DNA of 12,137 bases. Origin: CAVPRW01 sp046727435 [NCBI: bacterium] (GTDB lineage Bacteria > Tectomicrobia > Entotheonellia > J063). Below the pieces are notes generated by a model, which ran no database searches, was not told the DNA's origin, and saw only the letters and a program-made list of their open reading frames with translations. Location of the stretch: positions 1 through 12,137 of the forward strand of contig JBKPCR010000186.1 in NCBI GenBank assembly GCA_046727435.1, given 5' to 3'. Position 1 is the stretch's first letter. Every line of letters begins with the position of its first letter. Positions 1,376 to 12,137 of this stretch are shown piece after piece. The translations under genes were made by a program, and so were the position numbers.

Positions 1376-2050
1376 ATGAGAGCGGTAGGGTACGACCGTA
1401 ATGGTCCTGCCGCCGTGCTCCATGTCGGTGAGATGCCGGATCCGACGCCAGGGCCGGGTGAGGTGCGGGTCCGTATCGTCACTTCGGGTATCAACCCGTC
1501 AGCCTGGAAGCGACGGCAGGGGCTGACCCGGCGCATGGAATTCCCGAGGGGCATTCCGCATCAGGACGGCGCCGGGGTCATCGCCACGGTCAGCTCAGAT
1601 CAGAAGGCGCAGATCGCCCTAGCCGCCGGGGCCGACGCCACCATCAACTCCCGGACTGAAGACACCATGCAGCGTCTCAGGGACATCGCCCGTGGGGAGG
1701 GCGTGGACCATATCGTCGAGGTCGATTGTGCCGGGCACTTCACGGTCAGTCGAGAGGTCCTCCGGGGCAATGGCGTCCTCGCCCGGTACTCGGCGGGCGT
1801 CGCGCCCCAGCCACCCGTCCCGCTGCACTTCAAGGCCAGCAACATCACCGTCCGGTTCGTCCTGGTCTATGACATGCCGGAAGCGGCCAAGCGCGCCGCC
1901 GTGCAGGAGATGACCCACCTCCTAGAAGGGGGGAAGCTGCGCCATCTCGCTGGTCCCCATTTCCCCCTCGAGTCAGTGCGGCAGGCGCACCAGGCCGTAG
2001 AAGGAGGCGCCATTGGCAAAGTCGTGCTGGAGGTGGCGGAAGACCCCTAA
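1376..2050 (+). pseudogene. Zinc-independent quinone oxidoreductase/MDR-family protein with an internal in-frame deletion
   Basis: The 224-residue frame is colinear at both ends with NADPH:quinone oxidoreductases of the medium-chain dehydrogenase/reductase superfamily, normally about 320-330 residues. The N-terminal GroES-like part is recognisable up to HQDGAGV (residues 62-68). The chain then jumps into the segment that normally follows the dinucleotide-binding strand (IATVSSDQK, 69-77, then AAGAD at 83-87), and continues to a normal C-terminus with GKVVLEV (214-220). About 100 residues are missing, including the rest of the catalytic domain and the glycine-rich NADPH motif, so the product should not bind cofactor normally. 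The reading frame is intact, so the loss was a clean in-frame deletion, possibly between similar GxGVIA/GARVIATV coding stretches. The ATG at 1376 has only a weak upstream GGTGA. It lies 33 nt after the monooxygenase gene, in a likely operon. Confidence 0.75.
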
Positions 2051-2079: not shown

Positions 2080-2545
2080 ACCTTGCGATGGTCCACGGCA
2101 GCAAGACTCGCACACCTCGTCGCGGCCGCCCAGGAGCTCTTGGGGGAGCAGTTCTGGGGGTGGTTGGTGACCGATCGGTAGAGCGCCTCCACTGGTAACC
2201 GACGTGGCGACGGCAGCTGTGTTGGACGCATCTGCTGCGCGACATTGAAGCCATGATCCAGCGCGGCGGGCGCTCGGCCGAGATCGGAGAGACCTTGCAA
2301 GCCCAGGCCCGCCAAATGTTCCACTCGTGGCACCGCGTCCGGGACGGCGCGCTGACGCATGCCAGCTCCAAGACCTCCATGCAGCCGATCCGACGGGAGG
2401 TCGAGCGACTGCTGGCGGCCGGCCAAACCTGCGGCGCGCCCAAGACCCCCGGGACCTGCCGGCAGATCCTCAAGCCGCATCAGGCGCTGTGGAGGTTCGT
2501 GCGTCATGAGGGGGTGAAGTCCACGAACAATACCGCACTTGGTGT
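2080..2545 (+). pseudogene. IS66-family transposase remnant
   Basis: Decayed central to C-terminal part of an IS66-type DDE transposase. In frame 1 from about 2080 the text reads TLRWSTAARLAHLV and then LVTDR, stopping at TAG 2179-2181. A one-base loss near 2186-2192 shifts homology to the next frame, where a TAA (2196-2198) interrupts the equivalent of WYPTWRRQLCWTHLLRDIE. Frame 3 then runs clean from 2253 with MIQRGGRSAEIGETL, WHRVRDGAL, REVERLL, GTCRQILK and ALWRFVRHEGV. The family signature PTNNxAERxxR is present only as STNNTA, and homology breaks off at about 2538, before the catalytic Glu. Two stops, a frameshift and loss of the end make it inactive. It begins about 30 nt after the truncated reductase gene. 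Confidence 0.85.
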
Positions 2546-2554
2546 GCTGACCAA

Positions 2555-3000
2555 CCGCGATACGGGGTAGGCGTCGAGGGTAACGCCGGCGCTTCGCTGG
2601 ACTTCAGGCTGAGTCCCACACGCGATGCCGATGCGGCCGAGCGCTTTTTCCGCCAGGTGCTCCAAGTCTCACATGCGCTTACACCTCGTGTGATCACTGT
2701 CGACAAGAACGCCGCGTACCCATTGGCCTTCGACGCCCTCCAGCCCGACGGCACCCTCCCAGAGACGTGTCTACTTCGGCAGTATAGATATTTGAATAAT
2801 ACGGTGGAACAGGATCATCGGTTGGTGAAATGCCGCGCGAATCCAGAGTTGGGGGTTTGGGGCGTTTGCCTTAGCGCAGCGAACGATTCAGGGCGATGAA
2901 GCCATGCACATGCTCCACAAAGGAGCTTGAAGGAGTCAGCAAGGGTGACGTCCTCACCCAGAACCGAGTCATCAACCAGCTGTTTGGTTTGGCTGCATAA
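2555..3000 (+). pseudogene. IS6-family transposase remnant (3' half)
   Basis: C-terminal half of an IS6/IS240-type DDE transposase. Homology starts near 2555, with GVEGN and then LDFRLSPTRDADAAERFFRQ, and continues through ITVDKNAAYP, where the second catalytic Asp is at 2702-2704, and RYLNNTVEQDHRLVK, where the catalytic Glu is at 2807-2809. The first Asp and the whole N-terminal helix-turn-helix are missing. The frame is then lost at a five-G run (2851-2855), which has one extra base compared with the family text LGFGAFA. It is lost again near 2921-2926, after MHMLHKG, before the last stretch NRVINQLFGLAA ending in TAA at 2998-3000. No terminal inverted repeat was recognised on either side. 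It directly abuts the IS66 fragment, which suggests insertion followed by deletion. Confidence 0.88.
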
Positions 3001-3027
3001 CGAGCAAGTACTCAGCAGCCTGCCCTC

Positions 3028-4011
3028 TCACTTGATGATTTTGTCCGCCTGGAACAGCACCGACTCCGGAATTGTAAGGCCAAGCTTTTTCGCGGTTTGC
3101 AGATTGATGACCAATTCAAACTTCATCGGCTGCTCCACAGGAATGTCGGCCGGCTTTGCCCCTTTTAAAATTTTGTCAACATAACGAGCGCCGTCCTTAC
3201 CCTCGATTCCGTAGCCGGGTCCGTAGGCCATCATGCAACCGTTTTCTGAATAGTCCGAGCGAGCGCAGATCGATGGCAACCCATGATTTATGGCCAGGTC
3301 TGCAATCCTTTTTTGGTTAGAATTGGCCAGAGGGTTCAGTGTCACCCAGAGAGCGGTGTTACGCGCCTCAACCGCTTCTTTGAAAGCAGCTTCATATTTA
3401 TCGGCACTACTTACTTCCATCGAATAAAGTTGCAGACCGAGTTCCCGCGCCGGCAGTTGACTTTCTTGCCACTGTGGCACGGAGCCTGGAGCTTGTGGAT
3501 CCCACAGGACCGCAACGCTGGACACCTTGGGAATAGTTTCTTTGAGGAACTCCAGTCGTTTGCCGGTCAAAATTGCCGCCATGTTCGTGATTCCCGTAGT
3601 GTTTCCCCCAGGTCGCGCCAGGCCTTCCACCAGTCCAGCCGTAACCGGGTCCGTCACGCCCATGAAAACGATGGGGATCGTCGTGGTCGCTTTTTTTGCG
3701 GCTAGCGCAGCGTTCGTTGTAACTGCAACAAGTACGTCGGGCTTTTGCCCAACCAGCTCGGCCGCAAGCTCGGGAAGCCGCTCGAAACCGCCGCCCTGAT
3801 GGCGATACTCAACGATAACGTTCTGTCCCTCAATGTAGCCGAGATCTAGCAGACCTTGCCGAAATGCCTCCAGACGAGGTGCGTCTGCGGCAGCTGAAAC
3901 GGCCGCGAGATACCCCACTCACGAGATTTTCTTCGGCTGCTGCGCATCGACCTGAACGCCAAGAGCGAGCAGAAGGGCGCAAAGAGGAACCCAAAAAATT
4001 TGTCTAATCAT
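3028..4011 (-). pseudogene. ABC-type substrate-binding protein (PF04392-like), interrupted by an in-frame TGA
   Basis: Periplasmic solute-binding protein of the ABC_sub_bind type, usually about 320-330 residues. Read from ATG 4011-4009 the frame is 327 codons plus stop, the expected length. CAGGAG lies about 7 nt upstream. Residues 1-23 form a classic signal peptide: a basic start (MIRQ), a hydrophobic core (WVPLCALLLALGV) and an AQ cleavage region. Codon 31 is TGA (3921-3919) where relatives normally carry Arg (KKIxRVGYL), consistent with CGA to TGA. The remainder is uninterrupted: GYLAAVSAAADAPRLEAF, GLLDLGYIEGQNV, VTDPVTAGLV, RPGGNTTG, then LTIPESVLFQADKIIK at the C-terminus. A GTG follows the stop directly but has no ribosome-binding site, and a product from it could not be exported. 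No permease or ATPase gene is adjacent. Codon use looks AT-richer than in the flanking redox genes. Confidence 0.85.
3919..3921 (-). other. In-frame TGA separating signal peptide from mature domain
   Basis: This codon lies between AAA-ATC-TCG and GTG-GGG-TAT on the minus strand, with homologous coding on both sides in the same frame. It is the only visible lesion in the gene. It could be a true nonsense mutation, a sequencing or assembly error, or a readthrough site; the sequence alone cannot distinguish these. Confidence 0.8.
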
Positions 4012-4061
4012 GGATTTCTCCTGAAGGTTTGCTGATGGGGTAGCTCCACCGTTAACCGTGG

Positions 4062-4223
4062 TCATAAGCACCACCGTTCTATAAGGCATATCAACGCATG
4101 CGAGGGGCGCCCACGCTGCTTGGAGGATGTCCAGCGTGGCGGTAGCACATGAAACGACAGCAGTTCCCGGATCATCCAACAATGCTCGGTGATCCCAGCG
4201 ACCATCGCTGGTGTCTGCTTGCT
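4062..4223 (-). pseudogene. C-terminal fragment of a DDE-type transposase (family not assigned)
   Basis: The minus strand encodes QTPAMVAGITEHCWMIRELLSF followed by LPPRWTSSKQRGRPSHAL and LIERWCL, ending at TGA (4064-4062). The pattern TPAMAAGLTDHxWxxxELL followed by a proline/arginine-rich tail is one I associate with the extreme C-terminus of DDE transposases in environmental bacteria, but I cannot name the IS family with certainty. Upstream, the 4224-4298 stretch shows possible homology in a shifted frame. The fragment sits immediately upstream of the binding-protein gene and may have displaced its promoter. Confidence 0.5.
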
Positions 4224-4355
4224 ACCTGCCACGCACAAGCGGCCGAACGCCCGCGGTGAGCCGTGCCCAAGAGCCGCAGCGAGGGACGAGCGGAGCAACT
4301 GTCTTGAATGTCAAGGGGGTCTTGTCTGTTATGCGTGAGGCACCTCCTCCACTTG
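4224..4355. other. Spacer between transposase fragments
   Basis: No gene, RNA or clear repeat is seen. The part nearest 4224-4298 may be a frameshifted extension of the neighbouring transposase fragment. Confidence 0.4.
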
Positions 4356-4823
<468 letters not shown>

Positions 4824-5090
4824 ATGCATCGACGGACATGGGACACCGACACGAAAGCCAAGAGCATCAATGAGGGCCTGCAGGGCAAGCCCGTCGCAGA
4901 ACTGTGTCACGCGTACCAGATCAGCCAATCCTTCTACGATCAATGGCGTGATCAGTATCTCACGCACGCCTCTAAAGCTTTTGACGTCCAGCCACGCCAC
5001 CAGAAGGAAGCCCACATTGCGCGCGAGCATGCGCGACTGAACACGCTCGTGGGGGAACTCACCCTGGAGCTAGAAAAAAGCGCCGAGTGA
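4824..5090 (+). CDS. IS3-family transposase OrfA (helix-turn-helix subunit)
   Basis: An 88-residue protein close in length and layout to IS3-family OrfA: an N-terminal helix-turn-helix (RRTWDTDTKAKSINEGLQ, then KPVAELCHAYQISQSFYDQW, residues 3-42) that binds IS ends, and a C-terminal leucine-zipper-like helix (REHARLNTLVGELTLELEK, 67-86). AAGAAGG lies 6-12 nt upstream of the ATG. IS3 elements make OrfAB by -1 frameshifting on A6G. Here an AAAAAAG occurs at 5074-5080, but in the phase GAA AAA AGC rather than A AAA AAG, so it is not in the canonical position. The overlapping -1 frame does hold OrfB-like sequence, which soon decays, so OrfA is orphaned and no transposition is expected. Confidence 0.82.
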   Translation: MHRRTWDTDTKAKSINEGLQGKPVAELCHAYQISQSFYDQWRDQYLTHASKAFDVQPRHQKEAHIAREHARLNTLVGELTLELEKSAE

Positions 5091-5275
5091 CGAGCCTAAC
5101 ACGACGGAGATCGCTCCAGGTCACCCAGCGCGATGAAGCTCTGCTCCCCCGCATCCAGGTCACGTCCCCTATAGGCAGCGCGCCCACCCACGACACGCCT
5201 CCTCACCGGACCCGCCAATCACCCTTCGCGGCGCTGGCCGCCAGCTCGTTTGGACTGTATGCGAATGTTGGGTGA
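5072..5275 (+). pseudogene. IS3-family OrfB remnant
   Basis: In the -1 frame relative to OrfA, sequence overlapping its end encodes RRRSLQVTQRDEALLPRIQ (to about 5152), which matches the start of IS3-family OrfB. After that the text (VTSPIGSAPTH and onward to the TGA at 5273-5275) loses similarity, apart from a possible frameshifted echo of the HPFWGYRRIW motif around 5218-5255. The DDE catalytic core, about 200 further residues in an intact OrfB, is absent. The boundary at 5275 is only the end of the open frame. Confidence 0.65.
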
Positions 5276-5506: not shown

Positions 5507-5635
5507 ATGCTCACGGCCAAGCAGGATGTCGTCGACCGTCGTGAGGATGGATTATTAGCGGACTATAAGCGGATCGGTATCCATGGCCTTTATCGATGCA
5601 TGAAGATAAGTGAAACGGACAGGAGGCTATCATGA
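5507..5635 (+). CDS. Possible 42-residue small ORF overlapping the GMC start (ATGA)
   Basis: A frame from ATG 5507 runs 42 codons and its TGA (5633-5635) overlaps the ATG of the GMC gene as ATGA, a common arrangement for translational coupling. The peptide is hydrophilic and charged (MLTAKQDVVDRREDGL at the start, ISETDRRLS at the end) with no domain I recognise. GAGAGGAG (5483-5490) lies about 16 nt upstream of the ATG, too far for a good ribosome-binding site. It could be a coupled leader ORF, the tail of a gene whose beginning was lost, or chance. The GMC gene has its own strong AGGAGG, located inside this ORF, so coupling would not be required. Confidence 0.3.
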   Translation: MLTAKQDVVDRREDGLLADYKRIGIHGLYRCMKISETDRRLS

Positions 5636-7152
5636 AATACGACGTGGTCATCATTGGAGCTGGTTCGGCCGGATGTGTCCTGGCCACTCGCCTGTCAGAG
5701 GACGCACAGCGCTCGGTGCTACTCCTGGAGGCTGGGCCGGATTATCCGGACCCGACGCACCTGCCGGACGAGCTGAAGTATGACTGTCATCAGGCCGCTT
5801 CGCAGGCTGGGGCTCCCCATAATTGGTCGTTCCTCGGTCAGGCCAGCCCGCAACAGTCCAGGCCGATTCCGGTGCCCCGGGGGAGGGTGGTCGGTGGCAC
5901 CAGTGCCATCAATCATCAGATTTTTTTGCGTGGCCCCCAGGAGGATTACGACGGCTGGGCGGCCCTGGGGAACGACGAGTGGAGCTATCGGAACGTTCTC
6001 CCGTATTTTAGAAAATCGGAAAGGGATCTCGGCATCCAGGACGAGTTCCACGGCACCGATGGCCCCATCCCGGTGCGTCGTCATCATCGGGAGCATTGGG
6101 TTCCCTTCCAGGCAGCATTTTATCACGCCTGTCTCGCCGCCGGGATACCCGATGATGAGGACTTGAACCATCCCACGTCTGGTGGCGTCGGGGCCTTCCC
6201 GCTAAATAACCCGGACGGCATCCGTATGAGCACCGCCTTGACCTATCTGCAGGCCTGTCGTCACCGCCAGAATCTGAGCGTCAAAGCGAACGCGCTGGTC
6301 CGGCGCATTCTCTTCGCCGGCCGGCAAGCGGTTGGCGTGGAGGTTGACAGCGGCGGAGAGACCTTCGTCGTCGAAGCGGAAGACATCATCCTCAGTGCCG
6401 GGGCTATTCAATCCCCGCAAATCCTCATGTTGTCTGGTGTGGGACCGGCAGACCACCTGCGCAGCTTGGGCATCCCGGTGGTCCATGACCTGCCCGGCGT
6501 CGGGCAACATCTGAAGAATCACCCAGGGGTATCTGTGCGTTACCTCCCACAGGCGCATGATCTGCTCGACCCCAATGCCCCAAGAAACCAGGTGGCGTTG
6601 CGTTTGACTGCCCCAGGATCGCACACCCGGAACGACATCCAAATTCAACCCACGTCTTCCGGACCGGTGGGTCGTGCCGCCGAGGATATGCGCCTCGGGG
6701 TTAGACTGGAGCTGCCCATGAGCACTGGCGAAATCCGGCTGGCCTCCACTGACCCCACAGTGCAGCCTCACCTGGAGTATCGGCTCTTGACGCATCCCTG
6801 GGACCGCGAACATCTCCGCGCGGCGGTGTGCTTGTGCGTTGATCTGTTGCGGCAGCCGGTCTTCAAAGACATGGTGGGACACCGTACGACACCGACCGAC
6901 CAGGATCTGGCCTCTGACCACGCATTGGATACCTGGTTACAGCTCAGCGCCGGTATCGCGGGACACTCCTCGCTCACCTGTAAAATGGGACCAACGTCGG
7001 ATGCAATGGCGGTGGTGGATCAGTACTGCCAGGTCCATGGCCTGAGTCATCTGCGGGTGATCGACGCGTCAGCGATGCCCGAAATCCCCCGCGCCAACAC
7101 GAACGCCACAATCATTATGGTCGCCGAGCGTGCCGCGGACTTTATCAGGTAG
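5632..7152 (+). CDS. GMC-family FAD-dependent oxidoreductase (choline dehydrogenase-like)
   Basis: Predicted soluble flavoenzyme that oxidises an alcohol-type substrate with FAD; the electron acceptor and substrate cannot be told from sequence. The 506 residues are typical for the bacterial family. Landmarks are the Rossmann dinucleotide fold GAGSAG (9-14) ending in LLLEAG, GMC signature 1 around VPRGRVVGGTSAIN (81-94), GMC signature 2 GAIQSPQILMLSGVG (257-271), and the C-terminal GHSSLTCKMG with H445 followed by ANTNATIIMVAERAADFI. H445 and N491 are in the region of the family's His/Asn catalytic pair. The usual GTCRMG is LTCKMG here, a mild departure. No signal peptide is visible. ACAGGAGG lies 6 nt before the ATG. 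The gene is intact, unlike its upstream neighbours, and looks to be under its own promoter (5365-5393). Confidence 0.93.
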   Translation: MKYDVVIIGAGSAGCVLATRLSEDAQRSVLLLEAGPDYPDPTHLPDELKYDCHQAASQAGAPHNWSFLGQASPQQSRPIPVPRGRVVGGTSAINHQIFLRGPQEDYDGWAALGNDEWSYRNVLPYFRKSERDLGIQDEFHGTDGPIPVRRHHREHWVPFQAAFYHACLAAGIPDDEDLNHPTSGGVGAFPLNNPDGIRMSTALTYLQACRHRQNLSVKANALVRRILFAGRQAVGVEVDSGGETFVVEAEDIILSAGAIQSPQILMLSGVGPADHLRSLGIPVVHDLPGVGQHLKNHPGVSVRYLPQAHDLLDPNAPRNQVALRLTAPGSHTRNDIQIQPTSSGPVGRAAEDMRLGVRLELPMSTGEIRLASTDPTVQPHLEYRLLTHPWDREHLRAAVCLCVDLLRQPVFKDMVGHRTTPTDQDLASDHALDTWLQLSAGIAGHSSLTCKMGPTSDAMAVVDQYCQVHGLSHLRVIDASAMPEIPRANTNATIIMVAERAADFIR

Positions 7153-7414
7153 GGTCAATGAACCTTGGTGTTATGGCGTATCGACGCCACCACTGCCGGA
7201 CCTGGTCATCGAATGCGTCCAGCGCAGCATCCATCGAAGCGAGAAATCGGTCCCGACCGTCCGAGGGGGTGTTTCGTCAGAAGAGCGGCGGAATCTGGCG
7301 GCCGTCGGCCTCGCGGTTGCGGACAAGCGGAATACCAGGAGGCGTGAGGAACTGAAGGAGCTCTACCGGCATCACCTGAGGGAATGGGAGAGCAAAGAAG
7401 TGCTCATCATGTGA
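7130..7414 (+). CDS. Small ORF of unknown function, possibly a truncated gene
   Basis: The frame opens with GTG at 7130 inside the end of the GMC gene and ends at TGA 7412-7414, only 22 nt before the ATG of the next protein. The first 30-40 residues look like random sequence, while the end (SSEERRNLAAVGLAVAD, then RREELKELYRHHLREWESKEV) is a charged helix with natural codon use. This suggests a real C-terminal piece whose beginning was replaced, or a small gene with a later start. I recognise no family. A convincing ribosome-binding site was not found. Close spacing to the 7437 gene suggests they share a transcript. Confidence 0.35.
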   Translation: MPRTLSGRVNEPWCYGVSTPPLPDLVIECVQRSIHRSEKSVPTVRGGVSSEERRNLAAVGLAVADKRNTRRREELKELYRHHLREWESKEVLIM

Positions 7415-7436
7415 TGTAATTGGAGAAGGTGTAGCC

Positions 7437-8129
7437 ATGTGGCTTGACAGTTTCCGGGCTCTGAGCGAGGCCGAGCAACTCCTGGCGTCAGCCCTCCTGA
7501 AAGACCGTATTCCCCTATCAGCACATGGTATTCGCCTCCGCACCTCAATACTTGAACGCGCAAGTGGGGTTCTAGCAACGCGCCTTGCCACACAATTAGC
7601 TCCGGGAAAACGACGGAGACTTGTCTTCCTCCTCCCCAACTCCACTCAGAGTCTTGGACGCTTTCTGGCTGTCAGTCTTCTCGTGGCAGATTTTGTCCAT
7701 CGTGATGGTCGCCGTGTACCGTTCCATGAGAGAGGTCCACTGCTTCGCGGTGATCTTCTCCTCGTGACCCAACACATCCGCGAGTGCGTAGCGCTCCTCC
7801 GCGCAGTTTCCGTCCAGCACGGATCAGAAGCACTTCCACTAAGTTCGTTTTGGCCAATTGAGGTGCTCTCGCAGTGTACGCCATCGCCTGACGATCGACC
7901 ACGAGTGTTTGTCGCCAATCCAGGGTGGTACTCGACCCTAGGGGAACGAGCTGTCTTCGCCTCGGTGGTAATCGATGTCTCCCACCCACGAACCGCAGAT
8001 CACCTACATGGACTTCTGGCCCAGTCAACCATCGCCGCTGCACCGGTGCAAATCCTTGTAATTCCTCCATGGGAGGAAGACCGACTCCGCACGCTCCAGG
8101 AGTCTCACCGACTCACTACCCTGGCATAG
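7437..8129 (+). CDS. Unrecognised 230-residue protein upstream of a DUF1998/DrmB-like gene; possibly truncated
   Basis: The ATG at 7437 follows GGAG (7422-7425) and AAGGTG, a plausible ribosome-binding region. The protein is soluble, with alternating hydrophobic strands and helices resembling a Rossmann-like or helicase-like alpha/beta domain: RLVFLLPN (61-68), RGDLLLVTQHIRECVALLRAV (104-124), FWPIEVLS (138-145), PRVFVANPGW (155-164), ASVVIDVSHPRT (175-186) and VQILVIPPWEEDRL (204-217). There is no Walker A GKT and no DExx box; VIDVSHPRT stands where a motif II might be, so a catalytically dead helicase-like domain is an inference only. The chain ends soon after the last strand at TAG 8127-8129, while the next open frame (+1) starts at 8062, so this may be the N-terminal part of a longer, frameshifted protein. 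DrmE of class 2 DISARM is one candidate relative, untested. Confidence 0.6.
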   Translation: MWLDSFRALSEAEQLLASALLKDRIPLSAHGIRLRTSILERASGVLATRLATQLAPGKRRRLVFLLPNSTQSLGRFLAVSLLVADFVHRDGRRVPFHERGPLLRGDLLLVTQHIRECVALLRAVSVQHGSEALPLSSFWPIEVLSQCTPSPDDRPRVFVANPGWYSTLGERAVFASVVIDVSHPRTADHLHGLLAQSTIAAAPVQILVIPPWEEDRLRTLQESHRLTTLA

Positions 8130-8232
8130 GCATGGGATCCAGCCGCCGTCACTGCCATCTAACGCGTCCTGTCGATGTCCACAGCAACTGGCTACGCCCC
8201 CAGGAGAGGCGGCGATTGCTCAGGTACGTATC

Positions 8233-9258
8233 TTGCTCGGACCTGCAGCGCCGCGCACCCATGAACACCCGCCGCGTCAGCTCGTGGAGCATATTGCAGT
8301 TCTCGACACATTGTCGACGACCGGCATCGCAAGTGTGGCCGGCTGGTTGCGAGAGCGCAGCGACGAAGCGGGGGCAAGACGGGTAGAAGTTGCCGCACGT
8401 TTTGCGCACCATGCCCTCGGGATTGCGAATCTACGGGTGATCGACGACTTTCCTATTGCGCTCTTCGCCGTCGGCTACACTCGGATCACGCGCGATCCGA
8501 TGCGCAGCATCCTGTCGCCCTTTGAAACGCGCGATCCAGATGGAAGAACGCCGTTATACGTGGTGACTGCGGAAACCGCGGGGATCTACCTGCAACTCGA
8601 CCCAGCGCGTGTGGTAACTTGGCTTGTTGACAACGCGTGGCTCCAGGGTCCGGCCCCTCAGGCCGCAGATCAGGCATGGGCCTGGCTTTACCGACATGTG
8701 CCTGGCGCGACCCAGCACCGCTGGCAGCCGAATTACCACGCATCAGCAGCGTTCGCAATTCGTACGTTACTCCACACGATCAGCCACGTGCGCCTGCGCC
8801 ATGTCGAATGGAGTGGTTTTAGTCAGAACAGTGTTGGGGAATACCTCTTGCCAGGCGCCCTTGCGTGTGTCCTGTACGCCAACCGATATGCAGAGACGAA
8901 GATTGGCGGCCTCACAACCCTATTTGAGCAACGGCTAGGGATGTGGCTGGCAGATTCGGCCCAAAGTGGGCGCTGGTGCGTGTACGATCCATTTTGCACC
9001 GATGAGGGTGGAACGTGCGTAGGGTGCCTCCATCGCGAATACAATTGCCCCCAGTTCAACCGCGAACTGTCGCGAGCGGTCCTCTATGGGGGAGCAACGC
9101 CGCCAACCGAGGCCGACGGTGGCCTCGGTGCAGTACGAGGGGGGCGGCATAGCTGCCGGCTCGTTATCTTGCCGGAAGGAGCGCCGAGTTCCCCCCTGAA
9201 GGTAGATGCCTATGCCGGGTCGGTGGAGAGCTCGATGCGGTTGCCGCAGGGGTCATAG
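8233..9258 (+). CDS. DUF1998/DrmB-like protein, N-terminally truncated or frameshifted
   Basis: The product carries features of the DUF1998 (DrmB/MZB) fold. These are IANLRVIDDFPIALFAVGYTR (64-84), TPLYVVTAETAGIYLQLDP (106-124), LLHTISH (179-185) like the family LHTLSH, EYLLPGALACVLY (203-215), GGL (225-227), and a Cys cluster C249, C255, C262, C265 and C272 followed by NRELSRAVLYGG (276-287). In DrmB the equivalent part helps the helicase DrmA in DISARM anti-phage defence; the domain also ends Lhr/Hrq1-type and Druantia DruE helicases. DrmB proteins are usually about 600 residues, so the N-terminal part is missing. The frame is open from 8062 but has no ATG, GTG or TTG before the TTG used here at 8233. 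After residue 288 the tail is low-complexity and overlaps the convergent VOC gene by 49 nt, so the natural stop has probably been lost. Confidence 0.65.
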   Translation: MLGPAAPRTHEHPPRQLVEHIAVLDTLSTTGIASVAGWLRERSDEAGARRVEVAARFAHHALGIANLRVIDDFPIALFAVGYTRITRDPMRSILSPFETRDPDGRTPLYVVTAETAGIYLQLDPARVVTWLVDNAWLQGPAPQAADQAWAWLYRHVPGATQHRWQPNYHASAAFAIRTLLHTISHVRLRHVEWSGFSQNSVGEYLLPGALACVLYANRYAETKIGGLTTLFEQRLGMWLADSAQSGRWCVYDPFCTDEGGTCVGCLHREYNCPQFNRELSRAVLYGGATPPTEADGGLGAVRGGRHSCRLVILPEGAPSSPLKVDAYAGSVESSMRLPQGS

Positions 9259-9590
9259 ACATACACGGAGTATCCTGGCCCATTACCGTGCATCCGGATG
9301 TGCTCCACCTTGATGCCCTTCGCTTCCAACTCCTGCACCATGGCGTCCGGCTCCCGAGGGCCGTCGAACTCGAAGGTGTGATGGGGCACGCCCGGCCGGG
9401 GACCGTCCTGGGTGTCGAAGAGGCCCAAGCCGGTGCTGCCGAGCTTGAGCCGCACCACATTGGCTCCCGCCACCTGGTGTCGCGTGGTCTCCTCTGCACC
9501 CAGCCCGTCCCGGTAGAAGCGAACCATGGCCTCGAAGTCTTCGGCATTGATGTTCCACGAACGCAGCCCGGTCAGGTGATACGGCATCAT
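9210..9590 (-). CDS. VOC-superfamily protein (glyoxalase/bleomycin resistance/extradiol dioxygenase fold)
   Basis: A 126-residue single-module pair of beta-alpha-beta-beta-beta units, the usual size for small VOC proteins that act as dimers. Visible elements are the first strand LRSWNINAEDFEAMVRFY (9-26), VRLKLGSTGLGLFD (46-59), HHTFEFDG (70-77) and YSVYVYDPCGNRIEL (107-121) ending in E120. The His70/71 and Glu120 positions fit metal ligands, but the first-strand ligand (usually His in a GxxHV context) is replaced by Arg-Ser-Trp, so a metal-independent or atypical role is possible. Two start codons lie in tandem; AAGGAGG is 4 nt before the first and 7 nt before the second, favouring Met2. Substrate is unknown. 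The 3' end overlaps the convergent DUF1998-like ORF. Confidence 0.88.
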   Translation of the reverse strand: MMPYHLTGLRSWNINAEDFEAMVRFYRDGLGAEETTRHQVAGANVVRLKLGSTGLGLFDTQDGPRPGVPHHTFEFDGPREPDAMVQELEAKGIKVEHIRMHGNGPGYSVYVYDPCGNRIELSTDPA

Positions 9591-9810
9591 AGATCCTCCT
9601 TGCGTCGGGGTGCTACGCTGATGACGCGCGCTTGAGCCAGCCTGGCCTCATTGACACATCACCTGTTGTTTTGCCTTACTGCCAGTCTCCGGTTTCATCT
9701 ATGCCTACATCAAACCACATACGATCGGTCCAGAGAGATTCATCGAAACATTGGTCGGGCCGATGTCTCCGCCATGCACGTGTACCAATGGTCTGTGGTC
9801 CGATTGAGCT

Positions 9811-11128: not shown

Positions 11129-12137
11129 TTAAGATTTTTCAGCACCCTGCGGGGAACCGGCTGCAGAGCCCCGTTGCGACGGCATGCTCACCGGCCGTCG
11201 TGGCGCCAGGAACATCTGGCGCAGGCTGTCCATGTCGATCACAGGCATGTCTAGGTCGAGGGCTTTCAGCACGCCATTGGCCAACTCGTTGTAATCGCTA
11301 AACCAACGTCGCAGCCGATTGCGCCAGGTGGGTATGCCGCCGTTGGCATGCAGTTCAAACGCCGACTCGCGTCCATCAAGGCCGGATGAGATATGGTCCC
11401 AGGCCAGATTCAGGAGGGCCGAGCGCTGCAGTGCCGTATAGCCGCCCCCACCGAACGTTTCCTCCAGGCCCGCCGCCATCTCCGGAGCGGCGAGGTCCGT
11501 GTCAGCGGGGGCCATGACCAGCGATGAGCCTGGCAGCACGCGCAGAATCTCGGTGAGACGTTGCCGGGCCTTGAGCATGGCGATGCTGCCCGCGGCGATG
11601 TGGATTAACCCCGGATAAGCATGTCCGGCCTGGGTCACTTGTGGGTCCAGCTCGGCGGCGGTGAGGCAGCTGCGGACCGTCTGCACCTCGGCGATGAGGT
11701 CCACCAAGTAGTCAAGCGTCTGTTGGTGCTCCCGCAGACCCATGGCGTCTGTGCAGGCCAGCGCGAGGCCTAAGGTGAACTCCGCCTTCGACAGCCAGCA
11801 GTATAACTGATGCCAGAAGAGCCAAGACGTAATACCCTCGCCCCGATCGAGCTCGAGAGGGGTCGCGCCGCTTGCCTCAGGTGGAGGTTCCGTCAGAAAC
11901 ACCCGGTCCCAGGGGATGAAAGTGTCCTCCAACCACATCTGTGCGTCGAGCTCATCGAACCGGCTGCTCAAAGGTGCCAGGAAAGGGTTGTTATGACGCG
12001 CGGCGATCCGCCGGCATACTACAGTCACGCCGGGCGCAGACACCGCTACGACGAACGTCGCCCGCTGATTCCCACACGTCACCGCCCCACCGGCGCCGAT
12101 GTAGACATCCTCGGCGAATGGGACGCTGGTGTGCATG
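11129..12137 (-). CDS. HpaB/PvcC-family flavin-dependent monooxygenase (4-hydroxyphenylacetate 3-hydroxylase-like), 5' end outside window
   Basis: About 335 residues of the C-terminal two thirds of a group D flavin monooxygenase (acyl-CoA-dehydrogenase-like fold), which hydroxylates phenolic or related substrates with FADH2 from a separate reductase. Family-typical text includes RATFVVAVSAPGVTVVCRR, PLSSRFDELDAQMWLEDTFIPWDRVFL, the helical region with HQLYCWLSKAEFTLGLAL, EETFGGGGYTALQRSALLNLAWDHI and the C-terminal FSDYNELANGVLKALDL. HpaB proteins run to about 480-520 residues, so some 150 N-terminal residues lie beyond the right edge; the Met at the edge is internal. The chain ends at TAA (11131-11129) after a low-complexity Ser/Pro/Gly tail. 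No reductase partner (HpaC-like) is in the window. Specific substrate is unknown. Confidence 0.88.
   Translation of the reverse strand, partial: MHTSVPFAEDVYIGAGGAVTCGNQRATFVVAVSAPGVTVVCRRIAARHNNPFLAPLSSRFDELDAQMWLEDTFIPWDRVFLTEPPPEASGATPLELDRGEGITSWLFWHQLYCWLSKAEFTLGLALACTDAMGLREHQQTLDYLVDLIAEVQTVRSCLTAAELDPQVTQAGHAYPGLIHIAAGSIAMLKARQRLTEILRVLPGSSLVMAPADTDLAAPEMAAGLEETFGGGGYTALQRSALLNLAWDHISSGLDGRESAFELHANGGIPTWRNRLRRWFSDYNELANGVLKALDLDMPVIDMDSLRQMFLAPRRPVSMPSQRGSAAGSPQGAEKS

What the first reader, a model, noticed from the sequence alone, without database searches (positions are those of the whole stretch)
7437..9258. Decayed or divergent DrmB-centred (DISARM-like) defence module
The 8233-9258 product has DUF1998/DrmB-type landmarks (LHTISH, GYTR, a five-Cys cluster, NRELSRAVLYGG), and it is preceded by a 230-aa protein with a helicase-like strand pattern but no Walker A or DExx box. 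Known DrmB proteins work with the helicase DrmA; no such helicase is in the window. Either this is a relic of a DISARM island, or a small system pairing a DUF1998 protein with a new partner. The surrounding IS debris fits a mobile defence locus.
Basis: partly seen in the sequence, partly recalled or inferred. Interest (0 to 1): 0.75.

Follow-up and report, generated by a model that had tools for sequence, protein, structure and literature searches.

The report
Broken remnant of a DISARM operon
Two adjoining gene pieces are leftover ends of a once roughly 11-kb anti-phage defence operon (DISARM) whose middle, including its motor gene, is gone, so the remnant is probably dead; intact copies elsewhere show a DISARM variant that current profile tools only partly recognise.

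Summary
8233-9258 matches the C-terminal part of DrmB (PADLOC 8.2e-30, profile 405-635 of 649). The "230-aa protein" is the N-terminal quarter of a divergent DrmE, ended by an in-frame stop. The last ~70 codons of a DNA methyltransferase gene precede it. The four relatives found (Rubrobacter plasmid, Tautonia, an Acidobacteria MAG, a Chloroflexota MAG) carry full-length MTase-DrmE-DrmA-DrmB genes in that order, three with DrmC. Against Tautonia the window lacks about 6.45 kb, from DrmE residue ~241 to mid-DrmB, with all of DrmA. Neighbouring genes are broken too. No two-gene system was found. Most likely this is a recently decayed DISARM operon. Possibly new: the intact operons join DrmABC to a DUF1156-like amino-type methyltransferase and a DrmE that PADLOC misses, and the window's DrmE piece is predicted to fold as an SF2 helicase RecA domain without Walker A or DExx box. 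A chimeric assembly join is not excluded: no reads or whole genome are held.

The parts
7193..7414 (+). 3' end (about the last 70 codons) of an amino-type DNA methyltransferase gene; the rest of the gene is missing
   Evidence: tblastn: Rubrobacter 572-633 of 645 (42%, 4.3e-9), Tautonia 566-637 of 638 (40%, 8e-9), Acidobacteria MAG 564-633 of 638 (2e-8); the Chloroflexota homologue gave no match at 1e-3
7437..8159 (+). 5' part of a drmE-type gene (first ~241 of ~825 codons)
   Evidence: 61% to Tautonia residues 3-247 (60%, 2.6e-88), 51% to Rubrobacter 1-236; predicted SF2 RecA-like fold
8127..8129 (+). in-frame stop inside the drmE piece; homology continues behind it
   Evidence: AWDPAA segment after the stop aligns with the intact homologues
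8160..8181 (.). deletion junction: 22 bases where Tautonia has 6,453
   Evidence: window pieces mapped on the Tautonia locus end at 5270 and start at 11724
8182..9129 (+). 3' half of a drmB gene, lacking its 5' half and last ~25 codons
   Evidence: 72% to Tautonia DrmB, 66-69% to Rubrobacter 304-627; PADLOC DrmB 8.2e-30
   Evidence: homology to Tautonia and Acidobacteria DrmB stops at 9129; ORFs, Glyoxalase PF00903

Best explanation
The region is a recently decayed cluster of pseudogenes: the remains of a DISARM-type operon (methyltransferase, drmE, drmA, drmB, drmC) cut from about 11 kb to about 1.9 kb by one internal deletion of about 6.45 kb and by losses at both ends. Shown: the three pieces, their order, the absence of the rest from the window, and the stop in drmE. 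Inferred: that the loss is a true deletion in the organism, and how the intact system worked. By analogy with studied DISARM, the methyltransferase would mark self DNA, the DrmA-DrmB complex would load on unmarked invading DNA, and DrmC would be a nuclease; DrmE is proposed as an ATPase-dead, helicase-like partner of DrmAB. The remnant should have no defence activity, because DrmA and the DrmB N-terminus that DrmA wraps round are missing.
For: PADLOC DrmB match to the C-terminal part only. Both ORFs have their best plasmid match on one Rubrobacter plasmid, in adjoining full-length genes of one operon with PADLOC DrmA (5.5e-108), DrmB and DrmC. Three more loci from genome contigs carry the same full-length order. 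Collinear mapping with one 6.45-kb gap. In-frame stop in the DrmE piece. Upstream methyltransferase end. Other broken genes in the window. Needed parts of DISARM from PMC9142583 (introduction and passages read).
Against: The DrmB piece is stop-free over 316 codons and shows no excess of private changes against Tautonia (12 and 12), so decay must be recent or the join an artefact. No reads, genome or sister strain were available. The methyltransferase piece matches 3 of 4 relatives only.
Confidence: 0.86

Rival explanations
1. Assembly artefact: the contig joins the two ends of an intact operon, or two strains, and the organism has a working DISARM system.
For: No reads or whole genome are held, and the DrmB piece is well conserved.
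Against: Three separate losses (methyltransferase 5' part, middle, DrmB end with DrmC) and an in-frame stop would be needed besides the join; unrelated genes in the window are broken in similar ways.
Confidence: 0.09
2. A working small system: the short DrmE-like protein and the short DrmB-like protein act together as a two-gene defence unit.
For: Both frames are open over long stretches and the DrmB piece is conserved.
Against: In 4 of 4 close relatives both are parts of longer genes flanking drmA; homology continues past the stop of the DrmE piece; no such pair was seen in the profile survey. The one short DrmE piece found (L014) has no DrmA or DrmB homologue within 19.9 kb.
Confidence: 0.03
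3. The DrmB C-terminal piece alone has been kept for a new role (domestication).
For: 12 private changes against 12 in Tautonia at otherwise agreeing columns; ordinary branch length, 0.18.
Against: Recent decay gives the same picture: in a simple simulation 49% of copies stay stop-free after 2% substitution. The piece lacks the DrmB start and end, and its ORF runs into a convergent gene.
Confidence: 0.02

Closest known systems
DISARM type II (PADLOC definition: DrmA, DrmB, DrmC, DrmE, DrmMII; PMC9252829, passage read)
   Same: Intact relatives have DrmA, DrmB, a DrmE-family protein in front of DrmA and, in 3 of 4, DrmC.
   Different: Their methyltransferase is amino-type and DUF1156-like, not the cytosine-5 DrmMII, and PADLOC finds no DrmE in 4 of 4. 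The window itself keeps only fragments.
DISARM type I (DrmA, DrmB, DrmC, DrmD, DrmMI; same passage)
   Same: DrmA, DrmB and DrmC core; an adenine- or amino-type methyltransferase.
   Different: DrmE is present, which PADLOC's type I prohibits. The methyltransferase of the variant did not list DrmMI among its matches shown (25 of 27 rows shown for two proteins). No DrmD was seen next to the operons, but it was not sought by profile.
[quoted passage not shown]
   Same: A DrmE-type DISARM whose methyltransferase is named MTase_II rather than DrmMII, so other methyltransferases in DrmE operons have been seen.
   Different: Archaeal proviruses; sequences were not compared here.
YprA-family systems ARMADA, Druantia, Dpd (PMC12458937, abstract and passages read)
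   Same: Built round YprA-family helicases and DUF1998 modules.
   Different: The Rubrobacter helicase matches DISARM DrmA at 5.5e-108 but DruE at 0.006 and DpdF at 0.073; the term DrmE does not occur in that paper.

Membership tests
DISARM (window remnant) | DrmB present | tested here: met
   C-terminal part only: PADLOC 405-635 of 649, 8.2e-30
DISARM (window remnant) | DrmA helicase present | tested here: not met
   Rubrobacter DrmA best E 0.57 in the window; four homologues none at 1e-3
DISARM (window remnant) | DrmC nuclease present | tested here: not met
   No match at 1e-3 with three DrmC homologues; Rubrobacter DrmC gave only scattered hits, best 0.003 without composition correction, taken as chance
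DISARM type II (window remnant) | DrmE present | tested here: inconclusive
   N-terminal piece of a DrmE-type protein by homology; no profile match of its own
DISARM type II (intact relatives) | DrmA, DrmB and DrmC | tested here: met
   Rubrobacter by PADLOC; the other three by BLAST to it, Tautonia also by NCBIfam below cut-offs and DrmC by PADLOC; DrmC not recognised in the Acidobacteria MAG
DISARM type II (intact relatives) | DrmE | tested here: inconclusive
   NCBIfam DrmE_fam below cut-off: Tautonia 1.9e-13, Chloroflexota 4e-5, Rubrobacter none at 0.01; Pfam DrmE_C 2.3e-4 for Rubrobacter; PADLOC 0 of 4. The variant profile finds L015, which is DrmE_fam above cut-off
DISARM type II (intact relatives) | Cytosine-5 methyltransferase DrmMII | tested here: not met
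   TDPPY and DPFSGGGT motifs in 4 of 4; DUF1156_antiphage 1.1e-20 for Tautonia, far below cut-off
Active SF2 helicase (DrmE piece) | SF2 RecA-like fold | tested here: met
   Model pLDDT 71; Z 13.8, rmsd 3.3 over 177 residues to ALC1; 49 of 50 listed titles are helicases, remodellers or their complexes. Foldseek itself: none at E<=0.001, first row an ORC subunit
Active SF2 helicase (DrmE piece) | Walker A and DExx motifs | tested here: not met
   No GK[ST] or DE.[HDQ] in the window piece
DISARM (any) | Anti-phage activity | not testable with these tools
   Needs an experiment

The most novel reading that the evidence does not exclude
The intact relatives form a so far undescribed class of DISARM: DrmABC with a DUF1156-like amino-methyltransferase and a divergent DrmE. 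DrmE is an SF2 pseudo-helicase that has lost its ATPase motifs and serves as a DNA-guiding or regulatory partner of DrmAB. The window is a decayed copy of that class.
Probability: 0.42. Interest if true: 0.5.

Novelty: new variant of a known kind. Interest (0 to 1): 0.3.

Why it matters
The window piece is a broken gene cluster, of modest interest as a snapshot of defence-system loss. Its relatives matter more: they show a DISARM arrangement that PADLOC sees only in part, because its DrmE has no matching model. They also lead to a testable idea about DrmE, whose interplay with DrmAB a structural paper calls a matter for future study (PMC9142583, discussion passage): an ATPase-dead SF2 helicase fold.

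Tried and rejected
Small two-gene system: rejected, since the relatives have full-length genes. Genome context: no genome is held, so the organism, and whether drmA survives elsewhere in it, stayed open. Phage carriage: no relative of the DrmE piece in viral contigs or phage records. Sequence search of solved structures: none for the DrmE piece or the DrmE profile, only four weak unrelated hits for the DrmB ORF. Repeats: five direct families and three inverted pairs of 12-21 nt in 7000-9700, none spanning the junction 8160-8181 as a flanking pair. No tRNA and no Rfam match. The Roseomonas and Halarchaeum plasmid loci have other partner genes and served as outgroups. The full-length DrmE model was poor (pLDDT 50), so its matches, 11 of 11 at E<=0.001 to SF2-type helicases or remodellers (second look), are weak support. 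Foldseek on the N-terminal model gave no match at E<=0.001 and mixed rows (ORC, DnaB, RAD51, terminase among SF2 helicases); the SF2 reading leans on the second look.

Literature searches: DISARM with DUF1156: no paper; 61 papers hold 'DrmE'; one listed, unrelated by title. None listed describes this variant by title or abstract; passages were read in five papers (PMC9142583, PMC12458937, PMC9252829, PMC11705971, PMC9716671). The original DISARM paper is not held, so 'undescribed' holds only for this library.

Limits: the survey scored at most two candidates per genome, and its tallies (1 of 392, 3 of 400, 3 of 396) include the three query genomes. The close relatives come from one genome scan with two peptide patterns (31 stretches, 3 confirmed) and one plasmid search, so others may be missed. 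An earlier count gave about 115 missing residues for the dehydrogenase; the alignment offset is 126.

Full report
What is in the window. The 8233-9258 product matches PADLOC DrmB with E=8.2e-30, but only positions 405-635 of 649. The 7437-8129 product matches nothing in PADLOC, Pfam or NCBIfam. A tblastn search of 72,556 plasmid records at E<=0.01 found one record for it, a Rubrobacter tropicus plasmid (53% identity); 44 records matched the DrmB ORF, the same plasmid best (69%). On that plasmid the matches lie about 7 kb apart in one operon: methyltransferase (645 aa), an 839-aa protein, DrmA (1253 aa, PADLOC 5.5e-108), DrmB (639 aa) and DrmC (315 aa).

How the pieces map. Against the Rubrobacter proteins the window holds methyltransferase residues 572-633 (7193-7378), residues 1-236 of the 839-aa protein (7437-8159, across an in-frame stop at 8127) and DrmB residues 304-627 (8182-9144) (304-614 ending at 9114 with composition correction). 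On the Tautonia locus the DrmE piece ends at 5270 and the DrmB piece starts at 11724: 6,453 bases lie between, against 22 in the window. The Tautonia operon spans 10,994 bases; the window keeps 7193-9129, about 1.9 kb. The methyltransferase piece begins 40 bases after the stop of a GMC oxidoreductase gene. DrmB homology stops at about 9129, before a convergent glyoxalase-family gene at 9210-9590.

Relatives. One scan of genome contigs gave three confirmed loci: Tautonia sociabilis, an Acidobacteria MAG and a Chloroflexota MAG. All three, like Rubrobacter, have full-length methyltransferase, DrmE-like (784-839 aa), DrmA and DrmB genes in the same order; DrmC follows in Tautonia, Chloroflexota and Rubrobacter but was not recognised in the Acidobacteria MAG. 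So 4 of 4 relatives are full-length and the window alone is truncated. DrmA in all four has TGGGKT and DELH motifs. A profile of the four DrmE-like proteins was run on 392, 400 and 396 genomes of the three phyla: 1, 3 and 3 matched at E<=1e-5, the three query genomes included. Of the four others, L016 and L017 have a cytosine-5 methyltransferase fused to a Vsr domain, then DrmE, DrmA, DrmB, with a DrmC match nearby; L015 has a cytosine-5 methyltransferase, DrmE, DrmA and DrmB; L014 has only a 386-aa middle piece of DrmE and no DrmA or DrmB homologue in 19.9 kb, probably another relic.

What the 230-aa piece is. Its relatives are divergent DrmE proteins. NCBIfam DrmE_fam matches the Tautonia protein at 1.9e-13 in collinear position (638-818 to 646-826 of 838) and the Chloroflexota one at 4e-5, both below cut-off, but not Rubrobacter at 0.01, where Pfam DrmE_C gives 2.3e-4, also below cut-off. 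The variant profile finds L015, which is DrmE_fam above cut-off (152.9 against 80 bits), and L016 and L017, with weak DrmE matches. PADLOC finds none of the four. The window piece is modelled with moderate confidence (pLDDT 71, pTM 0.77). In the second look at Foldseek's candidates 49 of the 50 listed titles are helicases, chromatin remodellers or their complexes (the other, 7oi6, is a mitoribosome assembly intermediate); best Z 13.8, rmsd 3.3 over 177 residues. Foldseek itself gave no match at E<=0.001 and mixed rows; the full-length model is poor. No GK[ST] occurs in 7 of 8 DrmE-type sequences; Rubrobacter has one at residue 553, outside the first domain. The pattern DE.[HDQ] hits only Tautonia (residues 268 and 732) and L016 (559), also outside it. 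In the five variant sequences the segment that looks like helicase motif II reads D[VA][ST]H (the motif equivalence is my inference).

The methyltransferase. In 4 of 4 relatives it has DPFSGGGT near the N-terminus and TDPPY near residue 450. Tautonia's matches NCBIfam DUF1156_antiphage at 1.1e-20, far below its cut-off; PADLOC lists PglX-, HmaB-, DUF1156- and type II-like matches. It thus looks amino-type, not the cytosine-5 DrmMII of PADLOC's type II definition (PMC9252829, passage). The motif reading rests on general knowledge of methyltransferase motifs.

Age of the decay. Among window, Tautonia, Acidobacteria MAG and Rubrobacter, private changes at columns where the other three agree are 12, 12, 18 and 22 for the DrmB piece and 12, 3, 16 and 30 for the DrmE piece (window against Tautonia p=1.0 and p=0.035; one of the window's 12 in DrmE is the stop). 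With the Chloroflexota sequence added the counts for window and Tautonia are 6 and 9 (DrmB), 3 and 1 (DrmE). A DrmB tree groups the window with Tautonia and the Acidobacteria MAG (support 0.87), branch 0.18 against Tautonia's 0.20. In a simple simulation the DrmB piece stays stop-free in 49% of trials after 2% substitution and 5% after 10%. The decay is thus recent relative to the split from Tautonia. Two unrelated genes are also broken: a zinc-type dehydrogenase lacks about 126 internal residues against 2eih, and an ABC substrate-binding gene is parted from its leader by an in-frame stop. Fragments of IS66, IS6 and IS3 transposases lie at 2253-5090.

Function. [quoted passage not shown] Without DrmA and the DrmB N-terminus the remnant should be inactive. 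For the intact relatives I infer self-marking by the methyltransferase, recognition of unmarked DNA by DrmAB, and a partner role for DrmE; none was tested.

Verdict. A relic of a DISARM-type operon, of a variant joining DrmABC to an amino-type methyltransferase and a divergent DrmE. The remnant is ordinary; the variant and the DrmE fold prediction are worth following. No paper in the listings seen describes the variant; the original DISARM paper is not held, and a related case, DrmE operons with another methyltransferase in archaeal proviruses, is in print (PMC11705971).

Noticed in passing
1376-2050 (+): Zinc/quinone-type dehydrogenase with an in-frame internal deletion: residues 1-74 match 2eih 1-74 and residues 64-220 match 190-342, so about 126 residues are missing.
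   Followed up: partly
3028-4182 (-): ABC substrate-binding gene (PF04392) parted from a leader-like stretch in the same frame by an in-frame stop at 3919-3921.
   Followed up: no
2253-5090: Transposase fragments: IS66 (2253-2570, profile 242-333/387), IS6 (2657-2899, 120-179/202), IS3 (4824-5090, 3-76/369).
   Followed up: partly
5632-7152 (+): GMC oxidoreductase scoring above the cut-off for mycofactocin dehydrogenase MftG (431 against 387 bits).
   Followed up: no
L014:10191-11351: Isolated 386-aa middle piece of a DrmE-type protein in another genome (of the Acidobacteria MAG's phylum), without DrmA or DrmB nearby: probably a second relic. A distant DrmB-like match lies on another contig (2e-5).
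   Followed up: partly
L003:1731-24546: Halarchaeum plasmid with DrmABC between a cytosine methyltransferase, a 910-aa protein with a weak HATPase match (0.004) in the place of DrmE, and a DrmMI-like protein; a second helicase gene follows.
   Followed up: no
L002:6955-12834: On a Roseomonas plasmid an annotated sigma-70 family factor gene directly precedes the drmA- and drmB-like genes.
   Followed up: no
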